From Serinicoccus chungangensis (lineage in GTDB: Bacteria > Actinomycetota > Actinomycetes > Actinomycetales > Dermatophilaceae), in NCBI RefSeq assembly GCF_001483745.1, contig NZ_LQBL01000031.1, positions 233,861-297,860 of the forward strand: 64,000 nt of DNA. The letters run 5' to 3'. Below are positions 4,194-54,313 of the stretch, one piece after another (positions within the stretch are counted from its first letter, which is position 1; each line of letters begins with the position of its first letter). The notes beneath the pieces were generated by a model. It saw only the letters and a program-made list of their open reading frames with translations, did no database searches and was not told where the DNA came from. The position numbers were made by a program, and so were the translations under genes.

Positions 4194-4685
4194 TCAGGAG
4201 GCGGCCTTGCGCGCGTGCAGCGCGCGCACTTGCTCCGCCAGCTCCGGGTCCGGCCCGGCGACCACGGCGCCGGGCACGAGGGCGGTGATCGGCAGCGGCG
4301 CGACGGCCCCCGGCGGCACGCCCAGCTCGGCCGACCAGACGGAGAGCTGCTCGGTGGAGGAGGCGTAGACGATGCGGCCCAGGCCCACCCAGCCGTGCGC
4401 CGCGGCACACATCGGGCAGTGCTCGCCGGAGGTGTAGACGGTGCTCGCGGCGCGCTCCTGCGGCGAGAGGTGCTGCGCGGCCCAGCGGGCGATCGCGAGC
4501 TCCGGGTGCTGGGTGTGGTCGCCCCCCGACACGTGGTTGTGGTCCTCGAGCAGCACCTCGCCGCCGGCCGAGACGAGCAGCGAGCCGAACGGCTCGTCAC
4601 CGGCGTCGAGCGCGGCCTCGGCCAGCTCGACGGCCCGGGAGAGGTGGGTCCGGTCGGTCGCGGAGATGCTCGTGCGTTCGCTCAC
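4194..4685 (-). CDS. Nucleoside/guanine deaminase-like zinc enzyme
   Basis: A 163-residue member of the cytidine/deoxycytidylate deaminase fold. The zinc site reads HPELA (His and catalytic Glu) and EHCPMC (two Cys), and the domain covers nearly the whole protein. Family members deaminate guanine, cytosine or adenine; the EHCPMCAAAHGWVG stretch fits small purine deaminases better than the tRNA enzyme TadA, but this is not proven. The GTG at 4685 is preferred over the upstream codon at 4727 because a TACCCT hexamer sits exactly 6 nt before it, as in other leaderless starts in this window. It is divergent from galE. Confidence 0.8.
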   Translation of the reverse strand: MSERTSISATDRTHLSRAVELAEAALDAGDEPFGSLLVSAGGEVLLEDHNHVSGGDHTQHPELAIARWAAQHLSPQERAASTVYTSGEHCPMCAAAHGWVGLGRIVYASSTEQLSVWSAELGVPPGAVAPLPITALVPGAVVAGPDPELAEQVRALHARKAAS

Positions 4686-4691
4686 GCCCCG

Positions 4692-4697
4692 AGGGTA
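4692..4697 (-). promoter_or_regulatory. -10 element of a leaderless promoter for the deaminase
   Basis: On the minus strand TACCCT is followed by 6 nt and then the GTG start, with no Shine-Dalgarno sequence. The hexamer overlaps one copy of the GGTATGCC octamer. Confidence 0.55.
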
Positions 4698-4762
4698 TGC
4701 CGCCGCCCTCCCGACCCGCCGCGTCACGGCATACCGGAGCTGCCGTCTGACACCATGACGGC

Positions 4763-5779
4763 ATGCGCGTTCTCGTCACCGGCGGCGCCGGCTACATCGG
4801 GTCCCACACGGTCGTCGCCCTGGCCCGGGCGGGCCACGAGGTGGTCGTCGTCGACGACTTCTCCAACAGCAAGCCGTCGGTGACGCCACGGCTGGAGGAG
4901 CTGGCCGGCATCCCCGTGCCGGTTCACGCCTTCGACCTCGCCGACGGCGACAAGCTCGACTCCCTGCTGGCGCAGGAGTCCTTCGACGCGGTCATCCACT
5001 TCGCCGCGTTCAAGGCGGTGGGCGAGTCGGTCGAGAAGCCGATCGACTACTACCGCAACAACATCGGCGCCACGCTGCGCCTCGTCGAGGCCATGGTCGA
5101 CCGCGGCGTCCCCCACCTGGTCTTCTCCTCCAGCGCCACCGTCTACGGCGAGGACGCGCCGGTGCCGATGACCGAAGGGCTGCCGACCTCCGCGACCAAC
5201 CCCTACGGGTGGACCAAGGTCATGAACGAGCAGATCCTGCGCGACGTGACCCACGCCTACCCGCAGCTCAGGGTGGCCCTGCTGCGCTACTTCAACCCGG
5301 TCGGCGCGCACCCCTCCGGACGCATCGGCGAGGACCCCTCCGACATCCCCAACAACCTCATGCCCTTCGTGGCCCAGGTCGCGGTGGGCCGGCGGGAGAA
5401 GCTCGCGGTCTTCGGCGACGACTACGACACCGTCGACGGGACCGGCGTGCGCGACTACATCCACGTGCAGGACCTCGCGGAGGGCCACGTCGCGGCGCTG
5501 GAGTGGATCAGCAGCCACGACCGGCCGCTGTCGGTGTGGAACCTCGGCACCGGACGCGGGACCTCGGTGCTCGAGCTGGTCTCCGCCTTCGAGCGGGCCA
5601 GCGGGCAGCAGATCCCCTACGAGGTCGTCGGGCGCCGCCCGGGCGACATCGCCAGCTCGTATGCCGACCCCTCGCTCGCGGAGTCCGAGCTGGGGTGGCG
5701 GGCGACCCGGTCGGTGGAGGACATGTGCGCCGACACGTGGCGGTGGCAGCAGGCGAACCCGCAGGGCTACCCCGACTGA
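4763..5779 (+). CDS. galE: UDP-glucose 4-epimerase
   Basis: A 338-residue cytoplasmic short-chain dehydrogenase that interconverts UDP-glucose and UDP-galactose for galactose use and cell-surface glycans. The NAD-binding motif TGGAGYIGS is at residues 5-13, SSSATVYG carries the catalytic Ser/Thr near residue 120, and YGWTK carries the Tyr/Lys pair near 150. LLRYFNPVGAHPSG is characteristic of GalE. Length is standard. The ATG at 4763 is the first in frame with the GalE N-terminus (MRVLVTGG) and has no clear Shine-Dalgarno. The 3' gap holds the first 22-bp repeat array. Confidence 0.95.
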   Translation: MRVLVTGGAGYIGSHTVVALARAGHEVVVVDDFSNSKPSVTPRLEELAGIPVPVHAFDLADGDKLDSLLAQESFDAVIHFAAFKAVGESVEKPIDYYRNNIGATLRLVEAMVDRGVPHLVFSSSATVYGEDAPVPMTEGLPTSATNPYGWTKVMNEQILRDVTHAYPQLRVALLRYFNPVGAHPSGRIGEDPSDIPNNLMPFVAQVAVGRREKLAVFGDDYDTVDGTGVRDYIHVQDLAEGHVAALEWISSHDRPLSVWNLGTGRGTSVLELVSAFERASGQQIPYEVVGRRPGDIASSYADPSLAESELGWRATRSVEDMCADTWRWQQANPQGYPD

Positions 5780-5955: not shown

Positions 5956-5961
5956 TACCCT
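5956..5961 (+). promoter_or_regulatory. -10 element of a leaderless promoter for blaI
   Basis: TACCCT lies 6 nt before the ATG at 5968 and no Shine-Dalgarno is present. No convincing -35 hexamer is visible; the last repeat unit of the upstream array ends close to the -35 position. Confidence 0.55.
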
Positions 5962-5967
5962 GCCGGT

Positions 5968-6360
5968 ATGCCCCTGCGCAGCACCTCCCTCGGCGACCTG
6001 GAGCGCGCCGTGATGGACATCCTCTGGTCCGAGGGACCAGGGCTGTCGGTCCGTGACGTCCTGGACCACCTGGAGCGGCGCGACCACCACAAGGAGCTGG
6101 CCTACACCACGGTGATGACGGTGCTGGACCGGCTGACGAAGAAGGGCGTGACCCAGCGGACCCGCGAGGGGCGGGCGTGGCAGTACTCCCCCGCCGCCAG
6201 CCGCGAGGAGCTCGCCGCCGGCGCCCTGCGCTCGGCCCTCGACACCGTCCAGGCCGACCGGACGGCCGCGATGCTGCACTTCCTGGACGACGCCAGCCCC
6301 GGTGAGCTCGACGACCTGCGGGCCGCGCTCGCCGAGGTCGAGCGCCGCCGCGGCGCCTGA
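5968..6360 (+). CDS. BlaI/MecI/CopY-family transcriptional repressor
   Basis: A 130-residue winged-helix regulator. The N-terminal half reads LGDLERAVMDILW...LSVRDVLDHL, with the recognition region AYTTVMTVLDRLTKKGVTQRTREGR, as in BlaI and the mycobacterial regulator Rv1846c. The C-terminal half is the dimerisation region. Such repressors bind inverted repeats as dimers and are released by cleavage by a membrane metalloprotease or by another signal. The next gene is such an M56-like protease and the one after is cydA, so control of cytochrome bd is a reasonable inference. The start at 5968 is chosen from homology and from the leaderless -10 spacing. Confidence 0.88.
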   Translation: MPLRSTSLGDLERAVMDILWSEGPGLSVRDVLDHLERRDHHKELAYTTVMTVLDRLTKKGVTQRTREGRAWQYSPAASREELAAGALRSALDTVQADRTAAMLHFLDDASPGELDDLRAALAEVERRRGA

Positions 6361-12800: not shown

Positions 12801-13410
12801 CCGGCTGGACGGGCCCAACGGGGCCGGCAAGTCGACCGCCCTGGCCGTGCTCGCTCGCCACCTCGACCCGGAGGAGGGCTGCTACCTCGTGTCCGGCGCG
12901 GGCGCAGCGGGAGGGTGCCGGTGCGGCGCGGACGTGCGGGCGCTGGACCTGGAGCAGACCCGGGCCCTGATGGCCGTCGTCGACGACGAACCGCACGCGT
13001 TCGCAGGGTCGGTCCGCGCCAACCTCGTGCTCGCCGCGCCCGGCGCGACCGACGGCGAGCTGCTCGACGCACTCGGGGCGGTCGACCTCGGCGGCTGGTT
13101 CGCCGGCCTCCCCCACGGGCTGGACACCCCCCTGACCGGGCTGTCGGGCGGGGAGCGCAGCCGGCTCGCGCTGGCCCGCGCGCTGCTCTCAGCGCGGCCG
13201 GTGGTCCTGCTGGACGAGCCCACCGCGCACCTCGACGACGCGACGGCCGAGCGCTCGCTCGGCGGGTTGCTGGCCGGTCTCGGCGGCGGCCGGTCGGTGG
13301 TGCTGGTGAGCCACACCGCGCCGGTCACCGGGCGGTGGACCGACCACCGGGTGGGCCGGGACGCCTCGTCGGCAGCGGACGACCGAGCGGTCCCGCAGCA
13401 CATCGGCTAG
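9898..13410 (+). CDS. cydDC: Fused CydD-CydC thiol reductant ABC exporter
   Basis: One 1170-residue polypeptide joins two half-transporters. The first half has an ABC transmembrane domain and an ATPase with Walker A GPSGAGKTT (near residue 388), signature LSAGQRARLALAR and LLLLDEPTANV. After a proline-rich linker the second half repeats the plan with GPNGAGKST (near 971), LSGGERSRLALAR and VVLLDEPTAHLDD. CydDC exports cysteine and glutathione-type thiols and is required for cytochrome bd assembly; the fused form is known in actinobacteria. The second ATPase carries a short insertion containing CRC between Walker A and the Q-loop. Start is GTG at 9898. Confidence 0.93.
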   Translation: MRPVDPALLRALPATRGPVASLSVVGILSGIVAIAQALCLALVVGAVVRGSREELTAYLGWLVALLVLRGVLAGTGELVARRAGLRVVGVVREALLRHWLGRPVEARPRTEVAVTRATDGVSALEPYVARYLPALVTAAVVPALALLALVVVDPWSALVVVLTLPLLPLFAALIGMHTRDETQRRWGAMELLAGHFLDVMRGLPTLVAYGRARAQVEVVREVGERHRRASVATLRTAFLSTAALELLATISVAMVAVAVGLRLAYGQMDLVVGLTAILLAPEAYWPVRRVGAEFHNAADGAQVLQELADEGVLGGAAAQGPGGRADGRAPRLGATTSGESAARGARPATPAGGSIGLTEVSYAHPGRVRTLDGLSLRTPAGPGVTALTGPSGAGKTTVLELLTGLRTPASGTVSAPAAHLATQRPLLLPGTVRDNLAIADPDATDAAMTQALERVGLWRQLADRHGLDTWLGDDGVGLSAGQRARLALARATLSPAPLLLLDEPTANVAVDGIPRLHQVITELAETRRIVVVTHDCYLAALADDRWRLEGAAEPAPRTGGPVHHLAAPVLSLPDPETAPGAESDVGRRADPEADPTPRPGEVDPVRTPRGRRGLALACLLGGASLSCGVALTATSGWLIVQSSTMPVVLTLLVAIVGVRAFGIFRPVFRYAERVVSHDVALDDLSRRRADLYAALIPLTPARLGRRSRGQVLTAAARDLEDVVDEHVRVSVPGWSTGIATLVGAVVAGWHLPAAGLVVAAGGLAVTLVGVLGYAAERPAQDAAVARRGEVRDRATALAAQLLPVQAVSGVDGGHRQLLAPVLRAEEAQRRGEARLTRARATGLAATWVVVAATATAVALLAFDARAVGALSGPFAALVALVPLALADAWADVPDVAGARARARSARARLDALVDQTPAVAGGGTASAPTGPPALELREVTARWSPGATGGPAPDLPPLDLDVQPGDRIRLDGPNGAGKSTALAVLARHLDPEEGCYLVSGAGAAGGCRCGADVRALDLEQTRALMAVVDDEPHAFAGSVRANLVLAAPGATDGELLDALGAVDLGGWFAGLPHGLDTPLTGLSGGERSRLALARALLSARPVVLLDEPTAHLDDATAERSLGGLLAGLGGGRSVVLVSHTAPVTGRWTDHRVGRDASSAADDRAVPQHIG

Positions 13411-13413
13411 GTT
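13408..13413 (+). promoter_or_regulatory. -10 element of a leaderless promoter for the membrane-anchored coiled-coil gene
   Basis: TAGGTT, which overlaps the cydDC stop codon, is followed by 6 nt and then the ATG at 13420. The gene has no Shine-Dalgarno and so probably has its own promoter rather than relying on the cyd transcript. Confidence 0.55.
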
Positions 13414-13419
13414 GCGGGC

Positions 13420-13758
13420 ATGGACACCTCCACCGCCGTCTGGATCGTCGTCATCGCCCTCGTCGTGGTGGCGGCGTTGGCCGTCTGGGCGATGATGGCC
13501 CGCACCAAGCGGCTGAACGCGGCCCGCGAGGAGGCGGCAGGGCTGCGGGAGAAGGCGCAGTCCGGGGAGTCCTACGCGCAGAGCGCCGAGGAGCGGGCCC
13601 GTGAGCTGCAGGGCAAGGCGCGCGAGGCCCAGCTGCGCGCGGACCAGCTGCACCGGGAGGCCGAGGAGGCGACCCGCATCGCGCGCGAGCACCGCGACCG
13701 CGTCACCGGCGACTACGTCAACGCCGACGAGATCGACCCGGACGCTAAGAAGCGCTGA
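13420..13758 (+). CDS. Small membrane-anchored coiled-coil protein
   Basis: A 112-residue protein of unknown function. Residues 6-27 form one hydrophobic helix (WIVVIALVVVAALAVWAMM). The rest is a charged, Ala/Glu/Arg-rich helix predicted by eye as a coiled coil (about 30-95), and the tail is acidic then basic (DEIDPDAKKR). The topology is N-out with a cytoplasmic coiled coil, or the reverse. Codon bias matches neighbours, which supports a real gene. No family is recognised. Confidence 0.7.
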   Translation: MDTSTAVWIVVIALVVVAALAVWAMMARTKRLNAAREEAAGLREKAQSGESYAQSAEERARELQGKAREAQLRADQLHREAEEATRIAREHRDRVTGDYVNADEIDPDAKKR

Positions 13759-14374: not shown

Positions 14375-14664
14375 CGGGGGTCCCCCCTCTTGGGGGCCGG
14401 CCCGTCGTCGGCACCGTCACGGCTGGGCAGCCAGTGCCGGTCGTCCCCGGCCTGCCCCCGGCTGCGGCGGTGCCACATCGAGGCCCCGACCAGGTAGGCG
14501 CCGGCGACCATCAACGCCAGCGTGGCGCCCTGGAAGAAGCCGTGCACGAAGCCGGAGTCGACGACGCGGCTCAGGCCGTAGGTGACGAAGCCGACGGCGA
14601 TCGCGCACAGGCCGGCGGTGAGACGGACCCGGGACATCGCGGTGGCGGCGGAGGGGATGCTCAT
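14371..14664 (-). CDS. Small two-helix membrane protein
   Basis: A 97-residue protein of unknown function with two hydrophobic helices (about residues 14-32 and 41-61) and a charged cytoplasmic tail. The ATG at 14664 is supported by promoter spacing: TATGGT ends 6 nt before it, so the message is probably leaderless. It is the first gene of a two-gene unit whose promoter is covered by two matching palindromes, which suggests strong repression under most conditions. Confidence 0.7.
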   Translation of the reverse strand: MSIPSAATAMSRVRLTAGLCAIAVGFVTYGLSRVVDSGFVHGFFQGATLALMVAGAYLVGASMWHRRSRGQAGDDRHWLPSRDGADDGPAPKRGDPR

Positions 14665-14666
14665 GC

Positions 14667-14713
14667 GTCAACCATACGTTGACACAGCGCCCGATGTCAA
14701 CGTGTCGTTGACA
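14667..14713 (-). promoter_or_regulatory. Leaderless promoter with twin GTCAAC-N5-GTTGAC operators
   Basis: Read on the minus strand, TTGACA (14695-14700) and TATGGT (14671-14676) are separated by 18 nt, and the ATG begins 6 nt after the -10. Two palindromes of the same design cover them: 14696-14712 over the -35, extendable to TGTCAACG-N3-CGTTGACA, and 14667-14683 over the -10. They are 29 bp apart centre to centre. This is the clearest repressor site in the window. The cognate regulator is not identified. Confidence 0.8.
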
Positions 14714-19594: not shown

Positions 19595-20266
19595 CTGCTC
19601 GCGCAGCGTGACGACCTCGAGCGCCACCGCCCCGGGGTCGACGAGGAAGTGCAGGTGGCCGCCGGTCATCGTGCGGCGCGGCCACCCCCGGCTGCGTGCG
19701 GCGGCGAGCTCGTCGGCATACGTCGACCCGAAGGCGAGGTATGCCTGTGGCCACGCCGTCCACCCGCTCGGCGGGGCCATCTCGGTGTCGAAGTAGGACA
19801 GCGGCAGCCGAGGGCACTCCTCGTCGATCTCCGGGAACCGGTCGGCCGGGACGACCTGGTCGACGACCTCTCGCGGCCACCAGCGGGTCCAGGGCGGCAG
19901 CAGGCCGTCGGCGTCGGCGAGCCCGGCGAGGTGCTCGCGGAAGCGTGCCGGGGCCAGCGGCGCCGGGCCGGCCTCCGGCGGCAGGGCTGCGTGCATGAAC
20001 GCGATGCCGACGCGCTCGCGGCCCGCGGTCGGCGCCGCGGCCCTGACGGCGGGAGCCAGGTACCCCGCGTTGCTGTGGGCCAGCATGGTCGTGCCGGGCT
20101 CCACCAACCCGGCCCACTCCCGGACGAGGGCGTGCGGATCGAGCCCCGGGCCGGCCTCCACCGGCGCGATCCCGACCCGGACCCCGGTCTGCTCCAGCGC
20201 ACGGGCCAGACCGGCATAGGCCGAGGTCGGCAGCAGCGGGCTCGGCAGGAGGAGAATGGTCGCCAC
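19583..20266 (-). CDS. Small alpha/beta-hydrolase-like protein
   Basis: A 227-residue protein starting with a hydrophobic strand (VATILLLPSPLLPTSAYAGLARALEQTG) and containing TTMLAHSNAGYLAP, which resembles the nucleophile elbow GHSxGG of alpha/beta hydrolases with Ser as nucleophile. GGHLHFLVDP near the end supplies a His. I assign the fold by eye with moderate confidence and no substrate. GTG at 20266 is chosen because TAGGGT lies 7 nt upstream. It is convergent with, and overlaps by 12 bp, the metallo-beta-lactamase-fold gene. Confidence 0.68.
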   Translation of the reverse strand: MATILLLPSPLLPTSAYAGLARALEQTGVRVGIAPVEAGPGLDPHALVREWAGLVEPGTTMLAHSNAGYLAPAVRAAAPTAGRERVGIAFMHAALPPEAGPAPLAPARFREHLAGLADADGLLPPWTRWWPREVVDQVVPADRFPEIDEECPRLPLSYFDTEMAPPSGWTAWPQAYLAFGSTYADELAAARSRGWPRRTMTGGHLHFLVDPGAVALEVVTLREQLPG

Positions 20267-20273
20267 GAGGCCG

Positions 20274-20279
20274 ACCCTA
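20274..20279 (-). promoter_or_regulatory. -10 element of a leaderless promoter for the hydrolase-like gene
   Basis: TAGGGT on the minus strand lies 7 nt before the GTG at 20266 and no Shine-Dalgarno is visible. Confidence 0.5.
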
Positions 20280-20332: not shown

Positions 20333-20352
20333 ATACCCTCAGGGGGTATGCT
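20333..20352 (+). promoter_or_regulatory. CsoR operator overlapping the leaderless csoR promoter
   Basis: ATACCC-N5-GGGTAT (20333-20349) is the classic copper operator half-site pair recognised by CsoR. Its right half merges into TATGCT (20347-20352), a -10 hexamer placed exactly 6 nt before the csoR ATG. CsoR bound here would cover the -10, giving copper-inducible autoregulation of the csoR-copZ-copA unit. Confidence 0.88.
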
Positions 20353-20358
20353 GTTGGC

Positions 20359-20646
20359 ATGGCTGTGAACGGATACACCGGGTCCAAGGAGGACTACCTC
20401 AAGCGGCTGCGCCGTATCGAGGGCCAGGTGCGCGGCATCGCCCGCATGGTCGAGGACGACACCTACTGCATCGACGTGCTCACCCAGGTGAGCGCGGCCA
20501 CCAAGGCGCTGCAGGCGGTGAGCCTCGGCCTGCTCGAGGACCACATCGGCCACTGCGTCGTCGACGCGGCCGCCGAGTCCGAGGAGGCCAAGGACGAGAA
20601 GGTCCGCGAGGCCTCCGCGGCTATCGCCCGGCTCGTCCGCAGCTGA
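20359..20646 (+). CDS. csoR: Copper-sensing transcriptional repressor CsoR
   Basis: A 95-residue all-helical tetrameric repressor. The Cu(I) ligands Cys37 (DDTYCIDVLTQ), His62 and Cys66 (EDHIGHCV) match C36/H61/C65 of the M. tuberculosis protein, so it should sense copper rather than formaldehyde or nickel. It binds its own promoter without copper and releases with it. The start ATG at 20359 is confirmed by leaderless promoter spacing. copZ and copA follow on the same strand. Confidence 0.93.
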   Translation: MAVNGYTGSKEDYLKRLRRIEGQVRGIARMVEDDTYCIDVLTQVSAATKALQAVSLGLLEDHIGHCVVDAAAESEEAKDEKVREASAAIARLVRS

Positions 20647-26170: not shown

Positions 26171-27022
26171 TCAGACCAGCTCGGCGAGGACCTCGTCGAG
26201 GGCGTCGGCCAGACCGTCCTCCTCTACCGCACCGGTGGTGCGGTCCGCGACCCGGAGCACCTCGTCGGGAGCCTGACCCATGGCATACCCCACGGCGGCC
26301 CAGTGCAGCATCTCCAGGTCGTTGCGCTGGTCGCCGACCGCTACCGTGCGGTGCGGCTGCACGCCGAGCCGGCGGCGCACGAGCTCCAGCGCGGACGCCT
26401 TGGACACGCCCTCGGGCGCGAGGTCGAGCCAGGCGCTGTAGCCCACGGCGTAGGACACCCCGTGCAGACCGATGCGTTCCACCAGCGCGGTGAAGTCGGC
26501 CGAGCTGAGCGTGGGCTCGCGGAAGGTCACCCGGGTCGCGGGCCGGGCGGCGAGCTCCTCGACGGGCACCACCCGCTCCTCGCCCCACAGCTCACCGGGC
26601 GGGAAGGGAGTGCTCACCTTGAAGCCCACCCCGATCTCCTCCACCGCGACCAGCGCGGAGGGCAGGTGGGTGTGCACGAGGGCGATGGCCGGGGCGGGGT
26701 CGAAGGTCACCATGTCGACGAGCTCGTAGCCCTCGTCCATCTGCGGCGCCGCGCTGATCGTCACCGCCCCGTTGGAGCAGACGGCAGGACGCCCCGCCGT
26801 GCTGAGCCCCAGCTGGTCCATGACCGGCAGGGTCGAGAGCACCGATCGTCCGGTGGCGATCATCACGGTGACGTGCGGCAGGGCCGCCAGGGCCTGGACC
26901 GTCTCGCGCACCCGCGGGGCGAGGTAGCCGTCGTGGTGGACGATGGTGCCGTCGACGTCCAGCGCCACGAGCAGCGGGGACGCGGTGGCGGAGGCGGGGT
27001 CGAACTGCTCGGGGTCGCTCAC
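26171..27022 (-). CDS. HAD-superfamily phosphatase, Cof type
   Basis: A 283-residue cytoplasmic phosphatase. DVDGTIV near residue 22 holds the nucleophile Asp, ATGRS is motif II, and VAVGDQRNDLEML is the motif IV Asp cluster. The Cof-type cap domain fills the middle. Cof-type members hydrolyse sugar phosphates, pyridoxal phosphate or nucleotides. The GTG start at 27022 has TAGGCT 6 nt upstream, so it is probably leaderless. It leads the two-gene operon with the RNA methyltransferase. Confidence 0.87.
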   Translation of the reverse strand: MSDPEQFDPASATASPLLVALDVDGTIVHHDGYLAPRVRETVQALAALPHVTVMIATGRSVLSTLPVMDQLGLSTAGRPAVCSNGAVTISAAPQMDEGYELVDMVTFDPAPAIALVHTHLPSALVAVEEIGVGFKVSTPFPPGELWGEERVVPVEELAARPATRVTFREPTLSSADFTALVERIGLHGVSYAVGYSAWLDLAPEGVSKASALELVRRRLGVQPHRTVAVGDQRNDLEMLHWAAVGYAMGQAPDEVLRVADRTTGAVEEDGLADALDEVLAELV

Positions 27023-27028
27023 CCGGCC

Positions 27029-27034
27029 AGCCTA
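27029..27034 (-). promoter_or_regulatory. -10 element of a leaderless promoter for the HAD gene
   Basis: TAGGCT on the minus strand, 6 nt before GTG 27022; no Shine-Dalgarno. Confidence 0.55.
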
Positions 27035-31345: not shown

Positions 31346-31453
31346 GGCAGGGCCCGCCCACGCTCTCGTCTCACCACGGGACCAGCCTAGGCAGACCCGG
31401 CGGGGGCGTGCCTCCGCCGCACGGGGGAGATCACGACCGGCCGTCGCGGTGGC

Positions 31454-32740: not shown

Positions 32741-32764
32741 AGCCTACTGGCGAGTCTGTAGGGT
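32741..32764. promoter_or_regulatory. Back-to-back leaderless promoters for serS and the lipid kinase gene
   Basis: TAGGCT (minus strand, 32741-32746) is 6 nt before the serS ATG, and TAGGGT (plus strand, 32759-32764) is 6 nt before the kinase ATG at 32771. Each -35 region must lie inside the other gene's -10 and start region, so the two polymerases should exclude each other. Confidence 0.6.
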
Positions 32765-32770
32765 CACGGC

Positions 32771-33793
32771 ATGGATTCTCCTGGCCGGGCGGCCGTCATC
32801 GTCAACCCCACGAAGTTCTCCGACGTGGGTCGCGTGCGCCGGCGGGTGGAGGAGGTATGCCGAGTGCACGGCTGGGAGGAGCCGCTCTGGCTCGAGACCA
32901 CCGCCGAGGACCCGGGGCCGGGCCAGACCGCCCAGGCGCTGGAGGCGGGGGTGGACGTCGTCTGCCCGCTCGGGGGCGACGGGACGGTCCGGGCGGTGGG
33001 GGCCGCGATGGTCGACTCCGGGGTGCCGGTGGGCCTGCTGCCCGGGGGCACCGGCAACCTGCTCGCCCGCAACCTGGAGCTGCCGGTCGAGTCGCTGGAC
33101 AAGGCCCTGACGATCGCCCTCACCGGCCGGACGGCCCCCATCGACACCTGCCGGCTCGAGCTCGTCCGGCCCACGACCTCCCAGCTGGAGGCGCGGCTGG
33201 AGGACGAGGAGGGCCAGCCCTCCACGAGCGTCGACATGGACGACGCCGTCGACGACCGCACCAGCCCGGAGGTGCGCGAGGAGCACCGCTTCCTCGTCAT
33301 GGCGGGCCTCGGGTTCGACGCGGAGGTCATGGCCGCCGCGCCGGAGAAGCTCAAGGACCGCGTCGGGTGGCTGGCCTATCTCGTGACCGGGCTGCAGCAC
33401 CTCAAGGGCCCCCAGTTCACCGTCGACCTGCGGATGCCGGGGAGCGGGCAGGTGCGCCGGCGGGTGCGCTCGGTCATGGTCGGCAACGTGGGCAGGCTGC
33501 AGGGCGGGATGGAGCTGCTGCCCGACGCGCTCGCCGACGACGGCACCATGGACGCGGTGCTGCTCTCCCCCGAGGGGATCGTCGGCTGGGTCGCGACCGT
33601 CGCCCAGCTCACCACCCGCCGCCGGATCGGGCACCGGCGGGTCGAGCACTTCCAGAGCCCCGAGGTGCGGGTCGTGTCGGACAAGCCGGTGGAGCTGGAG
33701 ATCGACGGGGACACCATCGGCTCGGTGCTGGCCATCCGGGTGCAGGTGGACCCCGGGAGCCTGCTCGTGCGCCTCCCCGGGACCGCCGCCTGA
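32771..33793 (+). CDS. Diacylglycerol/lipid kinase family protein
   Basis: A 340-residue kinase of the DAGK catalytic family. The nucleotide-binding motif CPLGGDGTVRAV lies near residue 60 and PGGTGNLLARNL near 90. The C-terminal half is the YegS/DgkB-like beta domain (GLGFDAEVMAAAPEKLK... and IDGDTIGSVLAIRVQVDPGSLLVRLP). Members phosphorylate diacylglycerol or related lipids at the membrane surface. ATG at 32771 fits the leaderless promoter and the usual N-terminus (AAVIVNPTKF). Confidence 0.9.
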   Translation: MDSPGRAAVIVNPTKFSDVGRVRRRVEEVCRVHGWEEPLWLETTAEDPGPGQTAQALEAGVDVVCPLGGDGTVRAVGAAMVDSGVPVGLLPGGTGNLLARNLELPVESLDKALTIALTGRTAPIDTCRLELVRPTTSQLEARLEDEEGQPSTSVDMDDAVDDRTSPEVREEHRFLVMAGLGFDAEVMAAAPEKLKDRVGWLAYLVTGLQHLKGPQFTVDLRMPGSGQVRRRVRSVMVGNVGRLQGGMELLPDALADDGTMDAVLLSPEGIVGWVATVAQLTTRRRIGHRRVEHFQSPEVRVVSDKPVELEIDGDTIGSVLAIRVQVDPGSLLVRLPGTAA

Positions 33794-34113: not shown

Positions 34114-34541
34114 TCGAGCGCCTGCCGCTCCTCGGGGGTCAGGACGATCTCGGAGTCCCCGCCGACGATGCCCTTGGCGTAGGTCCGGCTCTCGCCGCGG
34201 GCATGGATCGAGCTGATGACCATGCCGTCCCCCGTGTCGTCGACGACCGCGGCCGAGAAGCTCATCCGGCCACCCATGTCCCCGAAGGCGTCGTACCGGA
34301 CGACCGCCACGTGCCGCAGCGCCTGCGCGAGGTCACCGCGCACGCTCGCCAGCTCCTGCTCCAGCGCCTCGATCCGCCCGCGCTCGGGCGTGGTGGGCGC
34401 GCCCGCCTCGACGAGCTGGGTCAGCCGCCGGTCGACGACCCGCAGCCGTCGCCAGACGACAGCCGTGACCAGCAGCGCGAGCAGGGCGATCGCGCCGGCG
34501 GTCCAGGCGAGCAGCTCGGGGTCCAGGCGTGCAGCGTCCAC
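34086..34541 (-). CDS. DUF4446 family protein
   Basis: A 151-residue protein with one N-terminal membrane helix (residues about 13-30), a coiled-coil stretch (RIEALEQELASVRGDLAQAL) and the conserved DUF4446 core VRYDAFGDMGGRMSFSAAVVDDTGDGMVISSI...RTYAKGI. The family is widespread in actinobacteria and clostridia; its function is unknown to me. GTG at 34541 is chosen because TACCCT ends 6 nt upstream and the family N-terminus fits. Its 3' end has been duplicated across the adjacent repeat array. Confidence 0.86.
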   Translation of the reverse strand: MDAARLDPELLAWTAGAIALLALLVTAVVWRRLRVVDRRLTQLVEAGAPTTPERGRIEALEQELASVRGDLAQALRHVAVVRYDAFGDMGGRMSFSAAVVDDTGDGMVISSIHARGESRTYAKGIVGGDSEIVLTPEERQALDAARTGQDT

Positions 34542-34547
34542 GCGCTC

Positions 34548-34553
34548 AGGGTA
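34548..34553 (-). promoter_or_regulatory. -10 element of a leaderless promoter for the DUF4446 gene
   Basis: TACCCT on the minus strand, 6 nt before GTG 34541, overlapping a GGTATGCC octamer; no Shine-Dalgarno. Confidence 0.55.
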
Positions 34554-38671: not shown

Positions 38672-38709
38672 AGCGGGCGAGTCTACGTGCGTCGTGAGAG
38701 CCTGCCTGC

Positions 38710-39783
38710 ATGCGCGACGACGCCTCCCTGACCTGGCAGCCGGCCGAGGGCCACGGCGCGGGGGTGGTGTATGCCGTGGACGGCCCGCTGGGCCGGGTGC
38801 GCCTCGACCGGCCGCGCGCGATCAACGCGTTGGACCGGCCCGCCGTCGACTCGCTGCTGCACCAGCTGCGGGCCTGGGCCGACGACGACCGCATCGAGGC
38901 GGTCGTGCTCGACGGCGCCGGGGAGCGCGGCCTGTGCGCCGGGGGCGACGTCCGCGCGCTGCGGGAGGCGATCCTCGCGGGCCGCGAGCAGGAGGCGCTG
39001 GACTACTGGGAGGCGGAGTATGCCGTGGACGCCCTGGTCGCGACCTACCCCAAGCCCTACGTCGCGTGGATGGACGGGATCGTCATGGGCGGCGGTGTCG
39101 GGATCTCGGCGCACGGGTCGGTGCGGCTGGTGACCGAGCGGACGCAGCTCGCCATGCCCGAGGTCGTCATCGGCTTCTTCCCGGACGTGGCCGGGCTCCA
39201 CCCGCTCTCCCGCGCCCCCGGTGAGACGGGCACCCACGTGGCGCTCACCGGTGCGCCGGTGGGCGGGACGGACGCGGTGCTGCTGGGGATGGCCGACGCC
39301 CTCGTGCCCAGCCAGGCCGAGGACGAGGTCCTCGCGGCGCTGCGGGAGGACCCGACCCGGGACGCCCAGGCGCTGGCCGCCCTGGCCTCGGCCCCCGGCG
39401 GGACGGCAACGGCGCAGGCGTCCTGGCTGGAGCAGCAGCGGTCCTGGATCGACGAGTGCTACGTCGGGGACGACGCCGGGGAGATCCTGCGGCGGCTGCG
39501 CGAGCACCCCGAGCCCGCGGCCCAGGGGGCGGCCGAGCTGGTCGGCTCCCGCTCCCCCCACTCGGTGGCGGTCACGCTGGAGGCCCTGCGGCGGGCGGCG
39601 TCCATGACCGTCGAGGAGGTCCTGGCGCAGGACCTGCGGCTGGGCCCGGTCTTCGCGTCCCACCCCGACTTCGCCGAGGGTGTGCGCGCCCAGCTCGTCG
39701 ACAAGGACCGCCAGCCGCGCTGGCAGCACGCCTCGCTGGCCGACGTCACCCGGGCCGAGGTGCTGGCGGCCTTCGGCACCTGA
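38710..39783 (+). CDS. 3-hydroxyisobutyryl-CoA hydrolase-like (enoyl-CoA hydratase family)
   Basis: A 357-residue crotonase-fold protein. The oxyanion-hole motif is ERGLCAGGDVRALRE and the second is MDGIVMGGGVGIS. LAMPEVVIGFFPDVAGLHPLSRAPGE matches hydrolases of the ECH_2 class that remove CoA in valine breakdown, and the length (about 350) also fits that class rather than the 260-residue hydratases. ATG at 38710 gives the full family N-terminus. It is divergent from the DUF5926 gene. Confidence 0.85.
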   Translation: MRDDASLTWQPAEGHGAGVVYAVDGPLGRVRLDRPRAINALDRPAVDSLLHQLRAWADDDRIEAVVLDGAGERGLCAGGDVRALREAILAGREQEALDYWEAEYAVDALVATYPKPYVAWMDGIVMGGGVGISAHGSVRLVTERTQLAMPEVVIGFFPDVAGLHPLSRAPGETGTHVALTGAPVGGTDAVLLGMADALVPSQAEDEVLAALREDPTRDAQALAALASAPGGTATAQASWLEQQRSWIDECYVGDDAGEILRRLREHPEPAAQGAAELVGSRSPHSVAVTLEALRRAASMTVEEVLAQDLRLGPVFASHPDFAEGVRAQLVDKDRQPRWQHASLADVTRAEVLAAFGT

Positions 39784-39887: not shown

Positions 39888-39893
39888 TATCGT
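39888..39893 (+). promoter_or_regulatory. -10 element of a leaderless promoter for lgt
   Basis: TATCGT lies 7 nt before the GTG at 39901. The same hexamer and spacing precede the membrane-protein gene at 48950. Confidence 0.5.
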
Positions 39894-39900
39894 CGCGCTC

Positions 39901-40788
39901 GTGCCGCTGCTGACCGACCTGGCCCTGCTCGCCGCGAGCGCCTCCGGCGACGACTCACCGCTGCGCTGGGAGGACCTGGGACTCTCCCAGGGCATCGACC
40001 TGGGCTTCTTCACGCTGCGCTACTACGCGCTGGCCTACCTGCTGGGCATCCTGCTCGGCTACTGGCACTTCGTCCGCATGGCCAAGGCGCCCGGCAGCCC
40101 CATCACCTCGCGGCAGGTCGACGACCTCATGATCGGGGTGACCTTCGGCATCATCATCGGCGGCCGCCTCGGCTACGCCACGTTCTACAACCCCTCGCTG
40201 TGGACCTCGTGGGAGATCCTGCAGCCGTGGAACGGCGGGATGAGCTTCCACGGCGGCCTCATCGGCGTGCTCGTCGCGATGGCGTGGTTCACCTGGCGCC
40301 ACGACCTGAGCCCGCTGCGGGTCACCGACTACATCGCGGTCAACGTGCCGATCGGCATGATGCTCGGACGGATCGCCAACTTCATCAACGGCGAGCTGTG
40401 GGGCCGGCCCAGCGACGTGCCGTGGGCCATGGTCTTCCCCGGTGCCGGCGAGCAGCCCCGGCACCCCAGCCAGCTCTACGAGGCGGCGCTCGAGGGGGCG
40501 CTGCTCATCCTCGTGCTCTTCTGGCTCTTCTGGCGCACCCGGGCGCGCTGGCGGCCCGGTCTGCTGGCCGGGGTCTTCGCCATCGGGGTCGGCGGCGGGC
40601 GCTTCGTCGTGGAGTTCTTCCGCGAGCCCGACGCCCAGCTCACGGAGTTCGCCGCCGCGACCGGGCTCAACATGGGCCAGTGGCTGACGATCCCGCTCGT
40701 CGTGGCCGGGGTCGTGCTCGTCGTCCGGGCGCTGCGCCGCCCCGAGGTGGAGACGCCGGAGCCGGTCGAGGAGCAGCCGGCTAGCTGA
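39901..40788 (+). CDS. lgt: Prolipoprotein diacylglyceryl transferase
   Basis: A 295-residue polytopic enzyme that attaches diacylglycerol to the lipobox cysteine of lipoproteins, several of which are encoded in this window. The Lgt signature GRIANFINGELWGRP is near residue 158 and SFHGGLIGV near 117. About seven helices are visible. The C-terminus is short, unlike the long tails of some mycobacterial Lgt proteins. It overlaps the convergent MurE-like gene by 8 bp. Confidence 0.94.
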   Translation: MPLLTDLALLAASASGDDSPLRWEDLGLSQGIDLGFFTLRYYALAYLLGILLGYWHFVRMAKAPGSPITSRQVDDLMIGVTFGIIIGGRLGYATFYNPSLWTSWEILQPWNGGMSFHGGLIGVLVAMAWFTWRHDLSPLRVTDYIAVNVPIGMMLGRIANFINGELWGRPSDVPWAMVFPGAGEQPRHPSQLYEAALEGALLILVLFWLFWRTRARWRPGLLAGVFAIGVGGGRFVVEFFREPDAQLTEFAAATGLNMGQWLTIPLVVAGVVLVVRALRRPEVETPEPVEEQPAS

Positions 40789-42286
40789 CGTCCTCGCCGC
40801 GTCGCGCCGCGAGCGCCCGACGGGCCTCCCCGACCTCGTCCCAGGGCACCAGCTCGGTGCCGCGCTCCATGGTCTCCTCCGGGCCCTTGCCGGCCAGGAG
40901 GACCGTGTCGTCGGGGGCGGCCTCGCGCACGGCGTAGCGGATGGCCTCGGTGCGGTCGCCGATCGAGACGTAGTTCTCGCGCCCGGCCTCGCGGGCCCCC
41001 CGCTCCATCTCCTCGAGGATCTCCTGCAGCGGGGTGGTGCGGTGGTCCTCCTCGGTGAGCACGACGTGGTCGGCGAGCTGGGTGGCGACCCGGCCCAGCG
41101 GGGCGCGCTTGGACGGGTCACGCGGGCCTCCGGCCGAGCCGAGCACCACCCACAGCCGGCCCCGCGTCGTCACCCGCACCGTCTCCAGCGCCTTCTCCAG
41201 GCTCGGGGGGGTGTGGGCGAAGTCCACGATGACCCGCGGGTCGCCGTCGGTGTGCTCCACCATCTCCATCCGTCCGGCGACCCCGGCGAAGGTGGCGAGC
41301 CCGGCGACCAGCTCGTCCAGGGGCACCCCGGTGGCGGCGACGCCGGCCATCGCGGCCAGGGCGTTGGCGACGTTGAAGCGGCCGATCATCGGCAGCCGCG
41401 CCGGCGCCTCGCCCTGCGGCGCGTGGACGGTGAAGGTGATGGCCTCGGCCCCCTCGACCACGTCGGTGGCGCGCCAGTCGGCCGCGCTCCCCTCGGCGGA
41501 GTAGGTCGTCGCGCCGTGCCCGTCGGCGGTCGCCATCGGCAGGAGCTGCTCGACCCAGGGGCGGTCGTCGACGTTGAGGACGCTGTGCCGCGCCCGCTGC
41601 ACGAGCCGGGCCTTGTCGGCGAAGTACTGCTCCATGGTGCCGTGGAAGTCGAGGTGCTCGCCGGTGAGGTTGGTCCAGACCGCGACGTCGTAGTCGACCC
41701 CGCGCACCCGGTCCAGCGCCAGGGCGTGGCTGGAGCTCTCGACCACCGCGTCGCTCGCCCCGGCCTCGACGAGGTCGCGCAGGATCTGCTGCACCTGCGG
41801 GGCCTCGGGGGTGGTGAAGTGCGAGGGCGGCTGGCGCAGCACGCCGTCGGGCAGCTGGTAGCCGATCGTCGAGAGCAGCCCGCTGGCCCGCCCCGCCTCC
41901 CGCAGCAGGTGCAGCGCCAGGCAGGAGGTGGTGGTCTTGCCGTCGGTGCCGGTGACGCCGATGACCCGCAGCGCGTCACTCGGTCGCCCGGCGAGGGCCG
42001 TGGCCGCGTCGGCCAGCGCCGGCCGCACCGCCTCGACGCGCAGGTAGGGCACGGGACAGGTCGCGCCATCGGGCAACCCCTCGCCGATGACGGCGACGGC
42101 GCCACCGCGCACGGCCCGGTCGATGAAGGTGTGCCCGTCGAAACGGGCTCCGCGGATGGCCACGAAGGCGTCCCCCGGCCGGATCCAGTCCGCCTGGTGG
42201 CTCACTCCGGTGACGTCCACGTCGCCGGCCTCAGGGCCCGGGACGACACGGACCCCCAGGGTGGCGGCGAGGTCGCTCAGCTGCAT
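40781..42286 (-). CDS. murE: MurE-like UDP-MurNAc-dipeptide amino acid ligase
   Basis: A 501-residue Mur ligase with the three-domain plan: N-terminal UMAG-binding domain, central ATPase with GTDGKTTT near residue 112, and C-terminal domain with WVVLGSAGGPRDPSKRAPLG. It adds the third residue of the peptidoglycan stem. At the position where diaminopimelate enzymes have DNPR, this one reads EEDHRTTP, so the amino acid cannot be assumed to be diaminopimelate. The gene is alone, not in a division cluster, so it may be a second copy. ATG at 42286 has TAGGGT 6 nt upstream. Confidence 0.85.
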   Translation of the reverse strand: MQLSDLAATLGVRVVPGPEAGDVDVTGVSHQADWIRPGDAFVAIRGARFDGHTFIDRAVRGGAVAVIGEGLPDGATCPVPYLRVEAVRPALADAATALAGRPSDALRVIGVTGTDGKTTTSCLALHLLREAGRASGLLSTIGYQLPDGVLRQPPSHFTTPEAPQVQQILRDLVEAGASDAVVESSSHALALDRVRGVDYDVAVWTNLTGEHLDFHGTMEQYFADKARLVQRARHSVLNVDDRPWVEQLLPMATADGHGATTYSAEGSAADWRATDVVEGAEAITFTVHAPQGEAPARLPMIGRFNVANALAAMAGVAATGVPLDELVAGLATFAGVAGRMEMVEHTDGDPRVIVDFAHTPPSLEKALETVRVTTRGRLWVVLGSAGGPRDPSKRAPLGRVATQLADHVVLTEEDHRTTPLQEILEEMERGAREAGRENYVSIGDRTEAIRYAVREAAPDDTVLLAGKGPEETMERGTELVPWDEVGEARRALAARRGEDVS

Positions 42287-42292
42287 GGCGAC

Positions 42293-42298
42293 ACCCTA
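42293..42298 (-). promoter_or_regulatory. -10 element of a leaderless promoter for the MurE-like gene
   Basis: TAGGGT on the minus strand, 6 nt before ATG 42286; no Shine-Dalgarno. Confidence 0.55.
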
Positions 42299-48902: not shown

Positions 48903-48942
48903 AGCCTAGGAGGCGGCACCGACGGACCTGCGGCGTTATCGT
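48903..48942. promoter_or_regulatory. Divergent leaderless promoters of the SprT-like and membrane-protein genes
   Basis: TAGGCT (minus, 48903-48908) is 7 nt before ATG 48895, and TATCGT (plus, 48937-48942) is 7 nt before GTG 48950. Neither gene has a Shine-Dalgarno. Confidence 0.5.
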
Positions 48943-48949
48943 CGTGGCT

Positions 48950-49336
48950 GTGAACCTTGAGAAAGTCGTGTTCGGCTTCTTCGTCCTGCTGGCGGCGACC
49001 CTGAACTTCGGGTACGTCCTCGGCGACATCGACAACCCGGGGTTGCACAACGTCTACGAGCTGTACGCCGCGGTGGTGGTCAACATCATCGCGACCATCC
49101 TGAAGTTCGGCGACCGCACCCAGATCGGTGCGGTCCACCTGGCCACCTCCCTGGTCGCCAGCATCCAGCTCATCGTCGCCGCGCTCGTGTGGATCTGGGC
49201 CCGGCACGTCGACCCGGGCGGGCTGACCGGGCAGCACATGAGCAGCGTGGTCTCCATCGCGGCCGGCGCGCTGCTCGCCAACATCGTCTCCATCGTCCTG
49301 CTCGTCGTGGAGACGGTCTCCTACCGCCGCCGCTGA
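48950..49336 (+). CDS. Four-helix membrane protein beside potassium channel
   Basis: A 128-residue integral membrane protein with four hydrophobic helices (about residues 5-25, 37-52, 62-85, 98-122). It begins VNLEKVVFGFFVLLAATLNFGYVLGDID, which resembles small actinobacterial proteins encoded directly upstream of TrkA-domain ion channels. It ends 14 bp before the channel gene and so is probably co-transcribed. Function unknown; an accessory channel subunit is a guess. Confidence 0.75.
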   Translation: MNLEKVVFGFFVLLAATLNFGYVLGDIDNPGLHNVYELYAAVVVNIIATILKFGDRTQIGAVHLATSLVASIQLIVAALVWIWARHVDPGGLTGQHMSSVVSIAAGALLANIVSIVLLVVETVSYRRR

Positions 49337-51156: not shown

Positions 51157-51690
51157 TCAGCGGCTGCGGACCTCGACGATGTGCCCCACGACCTGCCGGA
51201 CCCAGGCGCGTTCGCGCCGCATCCAGCGGACGGCCACGAGGTTGGAGGGGACGACGACGAAGTCGCCCGCGGCGACGGCGAGGTCGGTCCCGAAGACGTC
51301 GGTGACGACCTCCCAGGCCAGGTCGGTGTGGCGGTGCAGGTGCTCGCCGACGGCCACGGCATACCGCTCCACGACCTCGTCGTGGTGCCCGTCCGCCCCC
51401 CGCGCCGCGAGCCACGCCGCGAGCTCGCGGTCCAGGCCGGCGCTGATGGACGCCAGGTCGTCGACGTCCACGCCGTCCGCCGCCACCGCGGCCAGGCCGG
51501 CGTCGATCCGGGCCCGCTCCGCCTCGCCGATCCTGCGCGACTCCGGCGTGAGCGGCAGCTCGCCGACGGGGCTCTCACCGGGGTCGGGCAGGGCCCGCAC
51601 CCGGGGCTCGTCCTGCGCCGACCGGGACCGGCCGAGCAGGTTCCGGACCTTGTCGAGGCCGGCCGACACACGGCGTCCGCGATCGCTCAT
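51157..51690 (-). CDS. Hypothetical protein, DUF3806-like
   Basis: A 177-residue soluble protein. An N-terminal helical part (LTPESRRIGEAERARIDAGLAAV) precedes a compact C-terminal domain with AVAVGEHLHRHTDLAWEVVTDVFGTDLAV and VVVPSNLVAVRWMRRERAWVRQVVGHI, which reminds me of DUF3806. Function unknown. ATG at 51690 has TACGCT 6 nt upstream and no Shine-Dalgarno. Confidence 0.75.
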   Translation of the reverse strand: MSDRGRRVSAGLDKVRNLLGRSRSAQDEPRVRALPDPGESPVGELPLTPESRRIGEAERARIDAGLAAVAADGVDVDDLASISAGLDRELAAWLAARGADGHHDEVVERYAVAVGEHLHRHTDLAWEVVTDVFGTDLAVAAGDFVVVPSNLVAVRWMRRERAWVRQVVGHIVEVRSR

Positions 51691-51696
51691 CCGGGC

Positions 51697-51702
51697 AGCG
51701 TA
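51697..51702 (-). promoter_or_regulatory. -10 element of a leaderless promoter for the DUF3806-like gene
   Basis: TACGCT on the minus strand, 6 nt before ATG 51690. Confidence 0.5.
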
Positions 51703-53762: not shown

Positions 53763-53773
53763 GAAGCTACCCC

Positions 53774-53803
53774 TTGGTCGCGGTGGGCCACCCGCCCTAT
53801 GGT
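53774..53803 (+). promoter_or_regulatory. Leaderless promoter for the DUF427 gene
   Basis: TTGGTC (53774-53779) and TATGGT (53798-53803) are separated by 18 nt, and the ATG at 53810 begins 6 nt later. Confidence 0.65.
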
Positions 53804-53809
53804 CGGGGT

Positions 53810-54313
53810 ATGTCTGCACAGACCGAGTCCGTCTGGGACTACCCGCGACCCCCGGCCGTGGACACCTCCGGGGGGGAGCACGTCGTCATCCGGGTGGGCG
53901 GGCAGACGATCGCCGAGACCGTCGCGGCGATCCGGGTGCTGGAGACCTCGCACCCGCCGACCTACTACCTGCCGCTCGGGGCCTTCGTCACCGGCGTCCT
54001 GCAGCCGGCCCGCGACAACCGCCGCACGACCTGCGAGTTCAAGGGGTCGGCGACCTACTTCGACCTCGTCGTGGACGGCACCCGGCTGAGCCGGGCGGCG
54101 TGGACCTACCCGGACCCGACCCCCGCCTTCCGCGAGATCGCCGACTACGCCGCCGTCATGCCCAGCGCCATCGACGGCGCGACCGACCCGGCGGACGGCT
54201 GCTACGTCGACGACGAGCGGGTGCAGCCGCAGGAGGGCGACTTCTACGGCGGGTGGATCACCTCGAGGGTGCGCGGGCCGTTCAAGGGGGCGGCGGGCAC
54301 CCAGGGCTGGTAG
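53810..54313 (+). CDS. DUF427 domain protein
   Basis: A 167-residue soluble protein with the DUF427 core: SVWDYPRPPAVD, VVIRVGGQTIAET, LETSHPPTYYLP, TTCEFKGSATYFDLVVDG and CYVDDERVQPQEGDFYGGWIT. The family is a small beta-rich fold of unknown role, frequent in actinobacteria. The start is fixed by leaderless promoter spacing. It stands alone between an acyltransferase and a lipoprotein gene. Confidence 0.9.
   Translation: MSAQTESVWDYPRPPAVDTSGGEHVVIRVGGQTIAETVAAIRVLETSHPPTYYLPLGAFVTGVLQPARDNRRTTCEFKGSATYFDLVVDGTRLSRAAWTYPDPTPAFREIADYAAVMPSAIDGATDPADGCYVDDERVQPQEGDFYGGWITSRVRGPFKGAAGTQGW

What the first reader, a model, noticed from the sequence alone, without database searches (positions are those of the whole stretch)
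4685..53810. Sixteen genes share a TAnnnT-N6/7-start signature of leaderless transcription
Sequence: TAnnnT ends exactly 6 or 7 nt before the start codon for genes starting at 4685, 5968, 13420, 14664, 20266, 20359, 27022, 32734, 32771, 34541, 39901, 42286, 48895, 48950, 51690 and 53810, and none has a Shine-Dalgarno. Genes inside operons instead have overlaps or AGGAGG sites. Leaderless messages are well known in actinobacteria, so the novelty is the density and the rule it offers for choosing starts. That these are real transcription starts is inference.
Basis: partly seen in the sequence, partly recalled or inferred. Interest (0 to 1): 0.72.

Follow-up and report, generated by a model that had tools for sequence, protein, structure and literature searches.

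The report
Genes whose messages lack leaders
About a fifth of this actinobacterium's genes carry a promoter box so close to the start codon that the message should begin at, or within a base or two of, the first codon; this is a well-documented way of starting genes in this group, so the finding is right but ordinary.

Summary
About 20% of genes carry it (83 of 388); the window is not significantly denser (16 of 52 against 67 of 336, p=0.10). It is kept in 80 of 95 congeneric orthologues and at serS in 79 of 79 relatives. Leaderless transcription is the supported reading; motif, distance and use in start prediction are published (PMC3160421, PMC3898074, PMC12340547, PMC9581028). One refinement: with a 7-base spacer the base before the start codon is nearly always a pyrimidine, with 6 it need not be, the footprint expected if transcription starts on the start codon.

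The parts
4683..4697 (-). -10 TACCCT, 6-nt spacer, GTG start at 4685 (cytidine/deoxycytidylate deaminase family)
   Evidence: motif-blind caller picks the same start; Pfam; only one homologue in the congener stretches, without the signature
5956..5970 (+). -10 TACCCT, N6, ATG at 5968 (penicillinase repressor family)
   Evidence: signature in 7 of 7 congeneric orthologues
13408..13422 (+). -10 TAGGTT, N6, ATG at 13420 (112 aa; only a Pfam match below the curated cut-off)
   Evidence: 3 of 9 orthologues keep it
14662..14676 (-). -10 TATGGT, N6, ATG at 14664, with TTGACA 18 nt upstream of the box and GTTGAC/GTCAAC inverted repeats over the promoter
   Evidence: no Pfam match; 1 of 1 orthologue
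20264..20279 (-). -10 TAGGGT, N7, GTG at 20266
   Evidence: no Pfam match; no orthologue in the congener stretches
20347..20361 (+). -10 TATGCT, N6, ATG at 20359 (Pfam Trns_repr_metal; CsoR/RcnR-type, that name recalled)
   Evidence: 10 of 10 orthologues at the same codon
20334..20348 (+). palindrome TACCC-N5-GGGTA whose last TA is the TA of the -10; possibly the repressor's own operator (inferred)
   Evidence: present and ending 10 nt before the start in 10 of 10 congeners; 3 sites of TACCC-N3..8-GGGTA in the 464 kb of this genome examined
27020..27034 (-). -10 TAGGCT, N6, GTG at 27022 (HAD hydrolase)
   Evidence: 9 of 10 orthologues, all at shifted start codons
32732..32746 (-). -10 TAGGCT, N6, ATG at 32734 (seryl-tRNA synthetase)
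   Evidence: 10 of 10 congeners; 79 of 79 named relatives with upstream DNA, the best 80 loci kept of 576
32759..32773 (+). -10 TAGGGT, N6, ATG at 32771 (diacylglycerol kinase family); back to back with serS, 36 nt between the two starts
   Evidence: 4 of 10 congeners; motif-blind caller starts 93 nt later
34539..34553 (-). -10 TACCCT, N6, GTG at 34541 (DUF4446)
   Evidence: 10 of 10 orthologues, at shifted codons in 9
39888..39903 (+). -10 TATCGT, N7, GTG at 39901 (prolipoprotein diacylglyceryl transferase)
   Evidence: 1 of 2 orthologues
42284..42298 (-). -10 TAGGGT, N6, ATG at 42286 (Mur ligase)
   Evidence: 10 of 10 orthologues at the same codon
48893..48908 (-). -10 TAGGCT, N7, ATG at 48895 (SprT-like)
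   Evidence: 5 of 5 orthologues
48937..48952 (+). -10 TATCGT, N7, GTG at 48950 (DUF6394); divergent from 48895
   Evidence: 5 of 5 orthologues at the same GTG; motif-blind caller starts 18 nt later
51688..51702 (-). -10 TACGCT, N6, ATG at 51690 (DUF3806 match)
   Evidence: 4 of 4 orthologues, 3 of them 8 codons further in, one more only as a fragment
53798..53812 (+). -10 TATGGT, N6, ATG at 53810 (DUF427)
   Evidence: 1 of 1 orthologue; motif-blind caller starts 48 nt later
   Evidence: 10 of 10 orthologues have N7/N8 at the same ATG

Best explanation
The boxes are -10 elements of the housekeeping (SigA/HrdB-type) sigma factor, placed so that RNA polymerase starts transcription on the first base of the start codon, or within a base or two of it. 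The mRNA therefore has no leader and no Shine-Dalgarno, and the ribosome must engage the 5'-terminal AUG/GUG directly. A 6-nt spacer puts the start codon at the seventh base after the box, the usual start position. With 7 nt, polymerase reaches the purine of the start codon when the intervening base is a pyrimidine. Shown here: motif, distance peak, order specificity, Shine-Dalgarno depletion, conservation and the spacer-dependent -1 base. Inferred: the actual 5' ends, the sigma factor, and direct ribosome initiation (shown for mycobacteria in passages of PMC4633059).
For: Motif-blind distance profile: N6 30, N7 18, N8 6 of 397 starts, 29 hits over the 31 distances from 10 to 40. Eight AT-rich control patterns have no peak there, highest single count 4. 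Whole-genome TAnnnT-Nk-ATG: k=5 36 (control 29), 6 250 (32), 7 191 (30), 8 62 (31), 9 40 (35). Shine-Dalgarno 4-mers: 2 of 83 signature genes, 78 of 183 other first genes, 56 of 115 operon-internal genes, 720 of 6181 internal RTG. Genes with a gap over 30 nt: 71 of 253; same-strand gap at most 30 nt: 8 of 123. Conservation: 80 of 95 congeneric orthologues against a mean of 3 of 95 for five control groups of spacings; serS 79 of 79. A palindrome shares the TA of the csoR-type box in 10 of 10 congeners. -1 pyrimidine: serS N7 34 of 35, N6 20 of 43. In the 47 of 79 genomes of the class with an N7-pyrimidine signal at least twice control: N7-purine 1477 against control 1394, N6-purine 2286 against 1653, N7-pyrimidine 6976 against 1880; 38 of 47 have a higher N6-purine than N7-purine ratio.
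Against: No RNA data were available. A -35 element is weak or absent: at least 4 of 6 matches to TTGACA in 10 of 83 against 8 of 166 control placements, p=0.066, although absence of a -35 is also reported for mycobacteria (PMC3898074). Several of the 16 are poorly conserved: 4685 0 of 1, 13420 3 of 9, 32771 4 of 10, 39901 1 of 2; 20266 has no orthologue in the stretches. The -1 difference between N7 and N6 is not significant at gene level in this genome alone (27 of 32 against 27 of 39, p=0.17). With N8 the -1 base is mostly a pyrimidine (9 of 9, 12 of 13, 3 of 4 in own, congener and named sets), but the -2 base, which the same reasoning would also make a pyrimidine, is one in only 6 of 13 in congeners (8 of 9 and 3 of 4 in the others).
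Confidence: 0.94

Rival explanations
1. TAnnnT is a translation-side signal (an AT-rich ribosome- or S1-binding element) in a leadered mRNA, not a promoter.
For: Its place is close to where a Shine-Dalgarno would sit, and signature genes lack Shine-Dalgarno 4-mers. Away from the start, TAnnnT is not clearly special upstream of other first genes: 57 hits against 27 for its reverse complement, but ATNNNT gives 51 (13471 positions each).
Against: Eight AT-rich control patterns give no such peak. The signature is common at first genes and rare inside operons. The -1 base depends on its distance to the box, which fits start-site selection and not ribosome binding. A palindrome overlies one box in 10 of 10 congeners. 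The same motif is the -10 of mapped mycobacterial start sites (PMC3898074, passages).
Confidence: 0.03
2. The signature is partly an artefact of choosing starts to fit it: with many candidate GTG/ATG codons, one can often be found behind a TAnnnT.
For: Five of the 16 starts differ from the motif-blind call. Allowing +-60 nt gives about 1.9 hits per distance (38 over distances 11-30) among 388 genes.
Against: The peak stands with fully motif-blind starts, and 11 of 16 are chosen blind. serS starts in relatives were set by protein alignment alone. About 6 of the 83 would be expected by chance.
Confidence: 0.02
3. Some of the boxes drive a message with a leader of 1-5 nt, or a leaderless message in addition to a leadered one from a second promoter further upstream.
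For: 8-nt spacers exist, and their -2 base is not held to a pyrimidine in congeners (6 of 13). Published maps report genes with both forms (PMC6448022, passages).
Against: The near lack of excess purine at -1 with N7 argues against a 1-nt purine leader as the usual product.
Confidence: 0.2

Closest known systems
TA-led (leaderless) genes of Actinobacteria, Zheng et al. 2011 (PMC3160421; abstract and passages seen)
   Same: TANNNT with little information in the middle, first T about 12 bp before the start (6 + 6, as here), over 20% of genes in Actinobacteria, 18.9% in Streptomyces coelicolor; a sequence-only method
   Different: The passages seen do not treat the -1 base against spacer length (a find for 'pyrimidine' and 'initiator' gave 0 occurrences as word starts); no RNA or box mutation there either
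Leaderless transcriptomes of mycobacteria (PMC3898074, PMC4633059, PMC6448022; passages seen)
   Same: TANNNT -10 without a conserved -35, about a quarter of messages leaderless, C commonest at -1, RTG at +1 necessary and sufficient, leaderlessness often shared by orthologues, 7 of 14 tRNA synthetase genes with a primary start site leaderless, two dominant spacings of the box
   Different: Those have mapped 5' ends; here only sequence. Here the pyrimidine preference at -1 is split by spacer length
-10 region adjacent to ORFs in Deinococcus-Thermus (PMC12340547; passages seen)
   Same: TANNNT mostly about 6-7 bp before the ORF, shown by mutation to act as a promoter, with a spacing requirement
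   Different: Another phylum; nearly one-third of genes in D. radiodurans, about one-fifth here
GeneMarkS-2 / StartLink (PMC9581028; passages seen)
   Different: Not run on this genome here

Membership tests
Actinobacterial leaderless genes (SigA-type -10 abutting the start codon) | TANNNT box at 6-8 nt before the start codon | tested here: met
   16 of 16; genome-wide peak
Actinobacterial leaderless genes (SigA-type -10 abutting the start codon) | No Shine-Dalgarno | tested here: met
   0 of 16; 2 of 83 in the sample
Actinobacterial leaderless genes (SigA-type -10 abutting the start codon) | First gene of a transcription unit | tested here: met
   71 of 253 genes with a gap over 30 nt against 8 of 123 with a same-strand gap of at most 30 nt; a tendency, not a rule
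Actinobacterial leaderless genes (SigA-type -10 abutting the start codon) | Start codon is ATG or GTG | tested here: met
   ATG 52, GTG 30, TTG 1 of 83; 16 of 16 in the finding
Actinobacterial leaderless genes (SigA-type -10 abutting the start codon) | Leaderlessness often shared by orthologues | tested here: met
   80 of 95 congeneric orthologues; serS 79 of 79; weak for 4685, 13420, 32771, 39901
Actinobacterial leaderless genes (SigA-type -10 abutting the start codon) | Transcript 5' end on the start codon | not testable with these tools
   no RNA data; indirect support from the spacer-dependent -1 base
Actinobacterial leaderless genes (SigA-type -10 abutting the start codon) | Conserved -35 element (not required in this family) | tested here: inconclusive
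   weak excess, 10 of 83 against 8 of 166, p=0.066

The most novel reading that the evidence does not exclude
Actinobacterial leaderless promoters obey a two-part code: with 6 bases between box and start codon any base may precede the start codon, but with 7 a pyrimidine is close to compulsory. This would be a class-wide footprint of selection for a message that begins exactly at the start codon, so strict that even a one-nucleotide purine leader is removed, and it could be read from sequence alone to grade leaderless start calls.
Probability: 0.68. Interest if true: 0.45.

Novelty: already known. Interest (0 to 1): 0.3.

Why it matters
Starts in high-GC actinobacteria are often mis-annotated, and a promoter box at a fixed distance is a strong, independent way to fix them; here it moved 5 of 16 starts away from a codon-usage call. 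The spacer-dependent -1 base turns a vague claim (short or no leader) into a sequence test for initiation on the start codon itself. Gene-by-gene conservation (serS has the box in 79 of 79 relatives examined) offers genes in which to ask why leaderless expression is kept.

Tried and rejected
Density as a special feature of this window: rejected, 16 of 52 against 67 of 336, p=0.10.

A preferred spacing of back-to-back leaderless promoters: 9 of 55 divergent pairs in the own-genome sample have both genes with the signature, with 29-136 nt between starts and no single preferred value. Pairs with the signature are closer than pairs without it, as absence of leaders would predict. Not pursued.

Leaderless mini-ORFs that end at a gene start: 2 of 183 other first genes, against 0-2 for seven control patterns, so no general enrichment; one case is noted in passing.

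A -35 element: only a weak excess. A start-codon preference (ATG 52 of 83 against 161 of 305, p=0.14) was not significant. TAnnnT away from the start as a second sign of promoters: 57 against 27 for the reverse complement, but ATNNNT gives 51, so not counted as support.

The spacer/-1 effect at gene level within this genome alone was not significant. It rests on whole-genome counts, congeners and other actinobacteria. The 79-genome totals without selection are N7-purine 3887 (control 4573), N6-purine 4908 (4915), N7-pyrimidine 10551 (5355). The 47 genomes were picked by N7-pyrimidine at least twice control; 20 had less than 1.3 times (there N6-purine 1939 against 2673, N7-purine 1939 against 2677), and the remaining 12 are only in the total. 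N6-pyrimidine was counted in the own genome only. Congeners and serS rows are not phylogenetically independent, and the named-loci set contains the serS genes. The extension of the rule to N8 is not borne out at -2 in congeners (6 of 13).

In one search orthologue hits starting after residue 25 were set aside as fragments. Genes whose start lies within 60 nt or 130 nt of the upstream end of a stretch were left out.

Literature: nine searches were made. I saw their listings, and found passages of six papers (PMC3160421, PMC3898074, PMC9581028, PMC4633059, PMC12340547, PMC6448022); no paper was read whole. Nothing seen states the -1 rule split by spacer, but the other nine papers listed were not opened and PMC6448022 shows a logo with two spacings, so absence from print is not established.
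Full report
What is there. All 16 boxes were read directly: 12 have TAnnnT-N6-start and 4 have TAnnnT-N7-start, on the strand of the gene, with no AGGA/GGAG/GAGG in the last 20 nt. Pfam gives ordinary housekeeping and regulatory families: deaminase, penicillinase repressor, metal-sensitive repressor (CsoR/RcnR type, that name recalled), HAD hydrolase, seryl-tRNA synthetase, diacylglycerol kinase family, DUF4446, Lgt, Mur ligase, SprT-like, DUF6394, DUF3806 and DUF427; two (14664, 20266) have no match and 13420 only one below the curated cut-off. The nearest named serS among the loci returned is 82% identical, from an Ornithinimicrobium MAG, so the genome is probably an Ornithinimicrobium or close kin (inference).

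More than chance. With these motif-blind starts TAnnnT is at N6 in 30, N7 in 18 and N8 in 6 of 397 genes; distances 10-40 hold 0-4 each. Internal in-frame ATG/GTG give 4 of 6287 at N6/7. Letting the start move by up to 60 nt, 83 of 388 genes (21%) have N6-N8, with about 6 expected by chance. Whole-genome counts before ATG peak at 6 and 7: 36, 250, 191, 62, 40 for N5-N9 against reversed-pattern controls of 29, 32, 30, 31, 35.

What it is. The signature genes are depleted of Shine-Dalgarno 4-mers even below the level of internal codons (2 of 83 against 720 of 6181), while other first genes (78 of 183) and operon-internal genes (56 of 115) are enriched. They sit mostly at the head of transcription units (71 of 253 genes with a gap over 30 nt, 8 of 123 same-strand genes with a smaller gap). 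At csoR (20359) a TACCC-N5-GGGTA palindrome ends exactly in the TA of the box in this genome and in 10 of 10 congeners; that it is the repressor's own operator is inferred. Further upstream of other first genes TAnnnT is commoner than its reverse complement (57 against 27), but so is ATNNNT (51), so this gives no clear support. A -35 element is weak at best (10 of 83 against 8 of 166, p=0.066).

Conservation. In ten congeners (regions of about 66 kb) 80 of 95 orthologues of the 16 genes keep a box at N6-N8 of an in-frame start within ten codons of the projected start, against 15 hits summed over five control groups of three spacings, a mean of 3 of 95. For 27022, 34541 and 51690 box and start codon are shifted together along the projected N-terminus in most congeners. 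Weak cases are 4685 (0 of 1), 13420 (3 of 9), 32771 (4 of 10), 39901 (1 of 2) and 20266 (no orthologue found). For serS, starts in relatives were set by protein alignment: of the best 80 loci, 79 have upstream DNA and all 79 have TAnnnT at N6 (43), N7 (35) or N8 (1) (in two the match began one codon late, and one locus is titled a Proteobacteria MAG).

A finer rule. If transcription begins on the start codon, a purine at -1 should be harmless with N6 (the sixth base after the box is too close) but harmful with N7 (polymerase could start at -1). In this genome pyrimidine:purine before ATG is 193:57 at N6 and 172:19 at N7, while the reversed-pattern controls are 15:17 and 12:18 (Fisher p=0.0004): the purine excess over control is 40 at N6 and 1 at N7. 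Gene-level pyrimidine counts at N6 and N7 are 27 of 39 and 27 of 32 in this genome (p=0.17), 55 of 85 and 59 of 63 in congeners (p=2e-5), 46 of 67 and 33 of 35 in the named loci (p=0.003); serS alone 20 of 43 and 34 of 35. In 79 genomes of the class, the 47 with a clear N7-pyrimidine signal show N7-purine 1477 against control 1394 but N6-purine 2286 against 1653, and 38 of 47 genomes go the expected way; in 20 genomes without signal 7 of 20 do. Because the base is the same one relative to the start codon, a preference tied to the start codon alone cannot explain the difference; start-site selection can. Against a simple extension: with N8 the -1 base is mostly a pyrimidine (9 of 9, 12 of 13, 3 of 4) but the -2 base is not in congeners (6 of 13).

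What is known. TANNNT about 12 bp before the start, counted from its first T, as the mark of leaderless genes, with over 20% of genes in Actinobacteria, was published in 2011 (PMC3160421). Mapped 5' ends in M. tuberculosis give the same motif, about a quarter of genes leaderless, C commonest at -1, and 7 of 14 tRNA synthetase genes leaderless (PMC3898074). An RTG at +1 is necessary and sufficient in M. smegmatis (PMC4633059). In Deinococcus radiodurans the box is mostly about 6-7 bp before the ORF and is a promoter by mutation (PMC12340547). Gene-start prediction already models leaderless transcription (PMC9581028). So the finding is correct and already known, and the density in this window is within the range of the genome. 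The conditional -1 base was not stated in anything I saw (searches; most listed papers not opened), but it would follow from the published general preference for a pyrimidine at -1.

Limits. No transcript ends were available. The gene caller is simple and gave no calls in the last 5.4 kb of the window, where GC is lower. Congeners and serS rows are related. Pattern counts over whole genomes include sites that are not gene starts, which the controls only subtract on average.

Noticed in passing
38669-38710: 38671(-, DUF5926) and 38710(+, enoyl-CoA hydratase family) are back to back with 38 nt between starts. The box of 38671 is kept in 10 of 10 congeners, that of 38710 is present in 8 of 9 but absent here.
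   Followed up: partly
29936-31389: The histidine kinase at 31345(-) has TAnnnT at N6 of its own start in 7 of 10 congeners but not here. Here a TAGGCT-N6-GTG opens an 11-codon frame whose TGA overlaps the kinase's GTG by 4 nt (GTGA), like the leaderless, coupled mini-ORFs described in mycobacteria.
   Followed up: partly
20334-20361: TACCC-N5-GGGTA palindrome shares its last TA with the -10 of the metal-repressor gene here and in 10 of 10 congeners; a similar palindrome lies at 42664 in the window.
   Followed up: partly
14664-14713: GTCAAC...GTTGAC inverted repeats at 14667-14684 and 14695-14713 cover the promoter of 14664(-), the first of them over the -10; they look like operators.
   Followed up: no
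58600-64000: GC falls to about 63-68% from 59 kb on and my codon-usage caller finds no gene; possible acquired stretch. Pfam matches: ArsR-type HTH at the end of an overlong ORF, MFS transporter, SnoaL-like protein, histidine-phosphatase match.
   Followed up: no
32734 and L021-L100: serS has the leaderless box in 79 of 79 relatives with upstream DNA, among them Bifidobacterium, Rhodococcus and Nonomuraea.
   Followed up: yes
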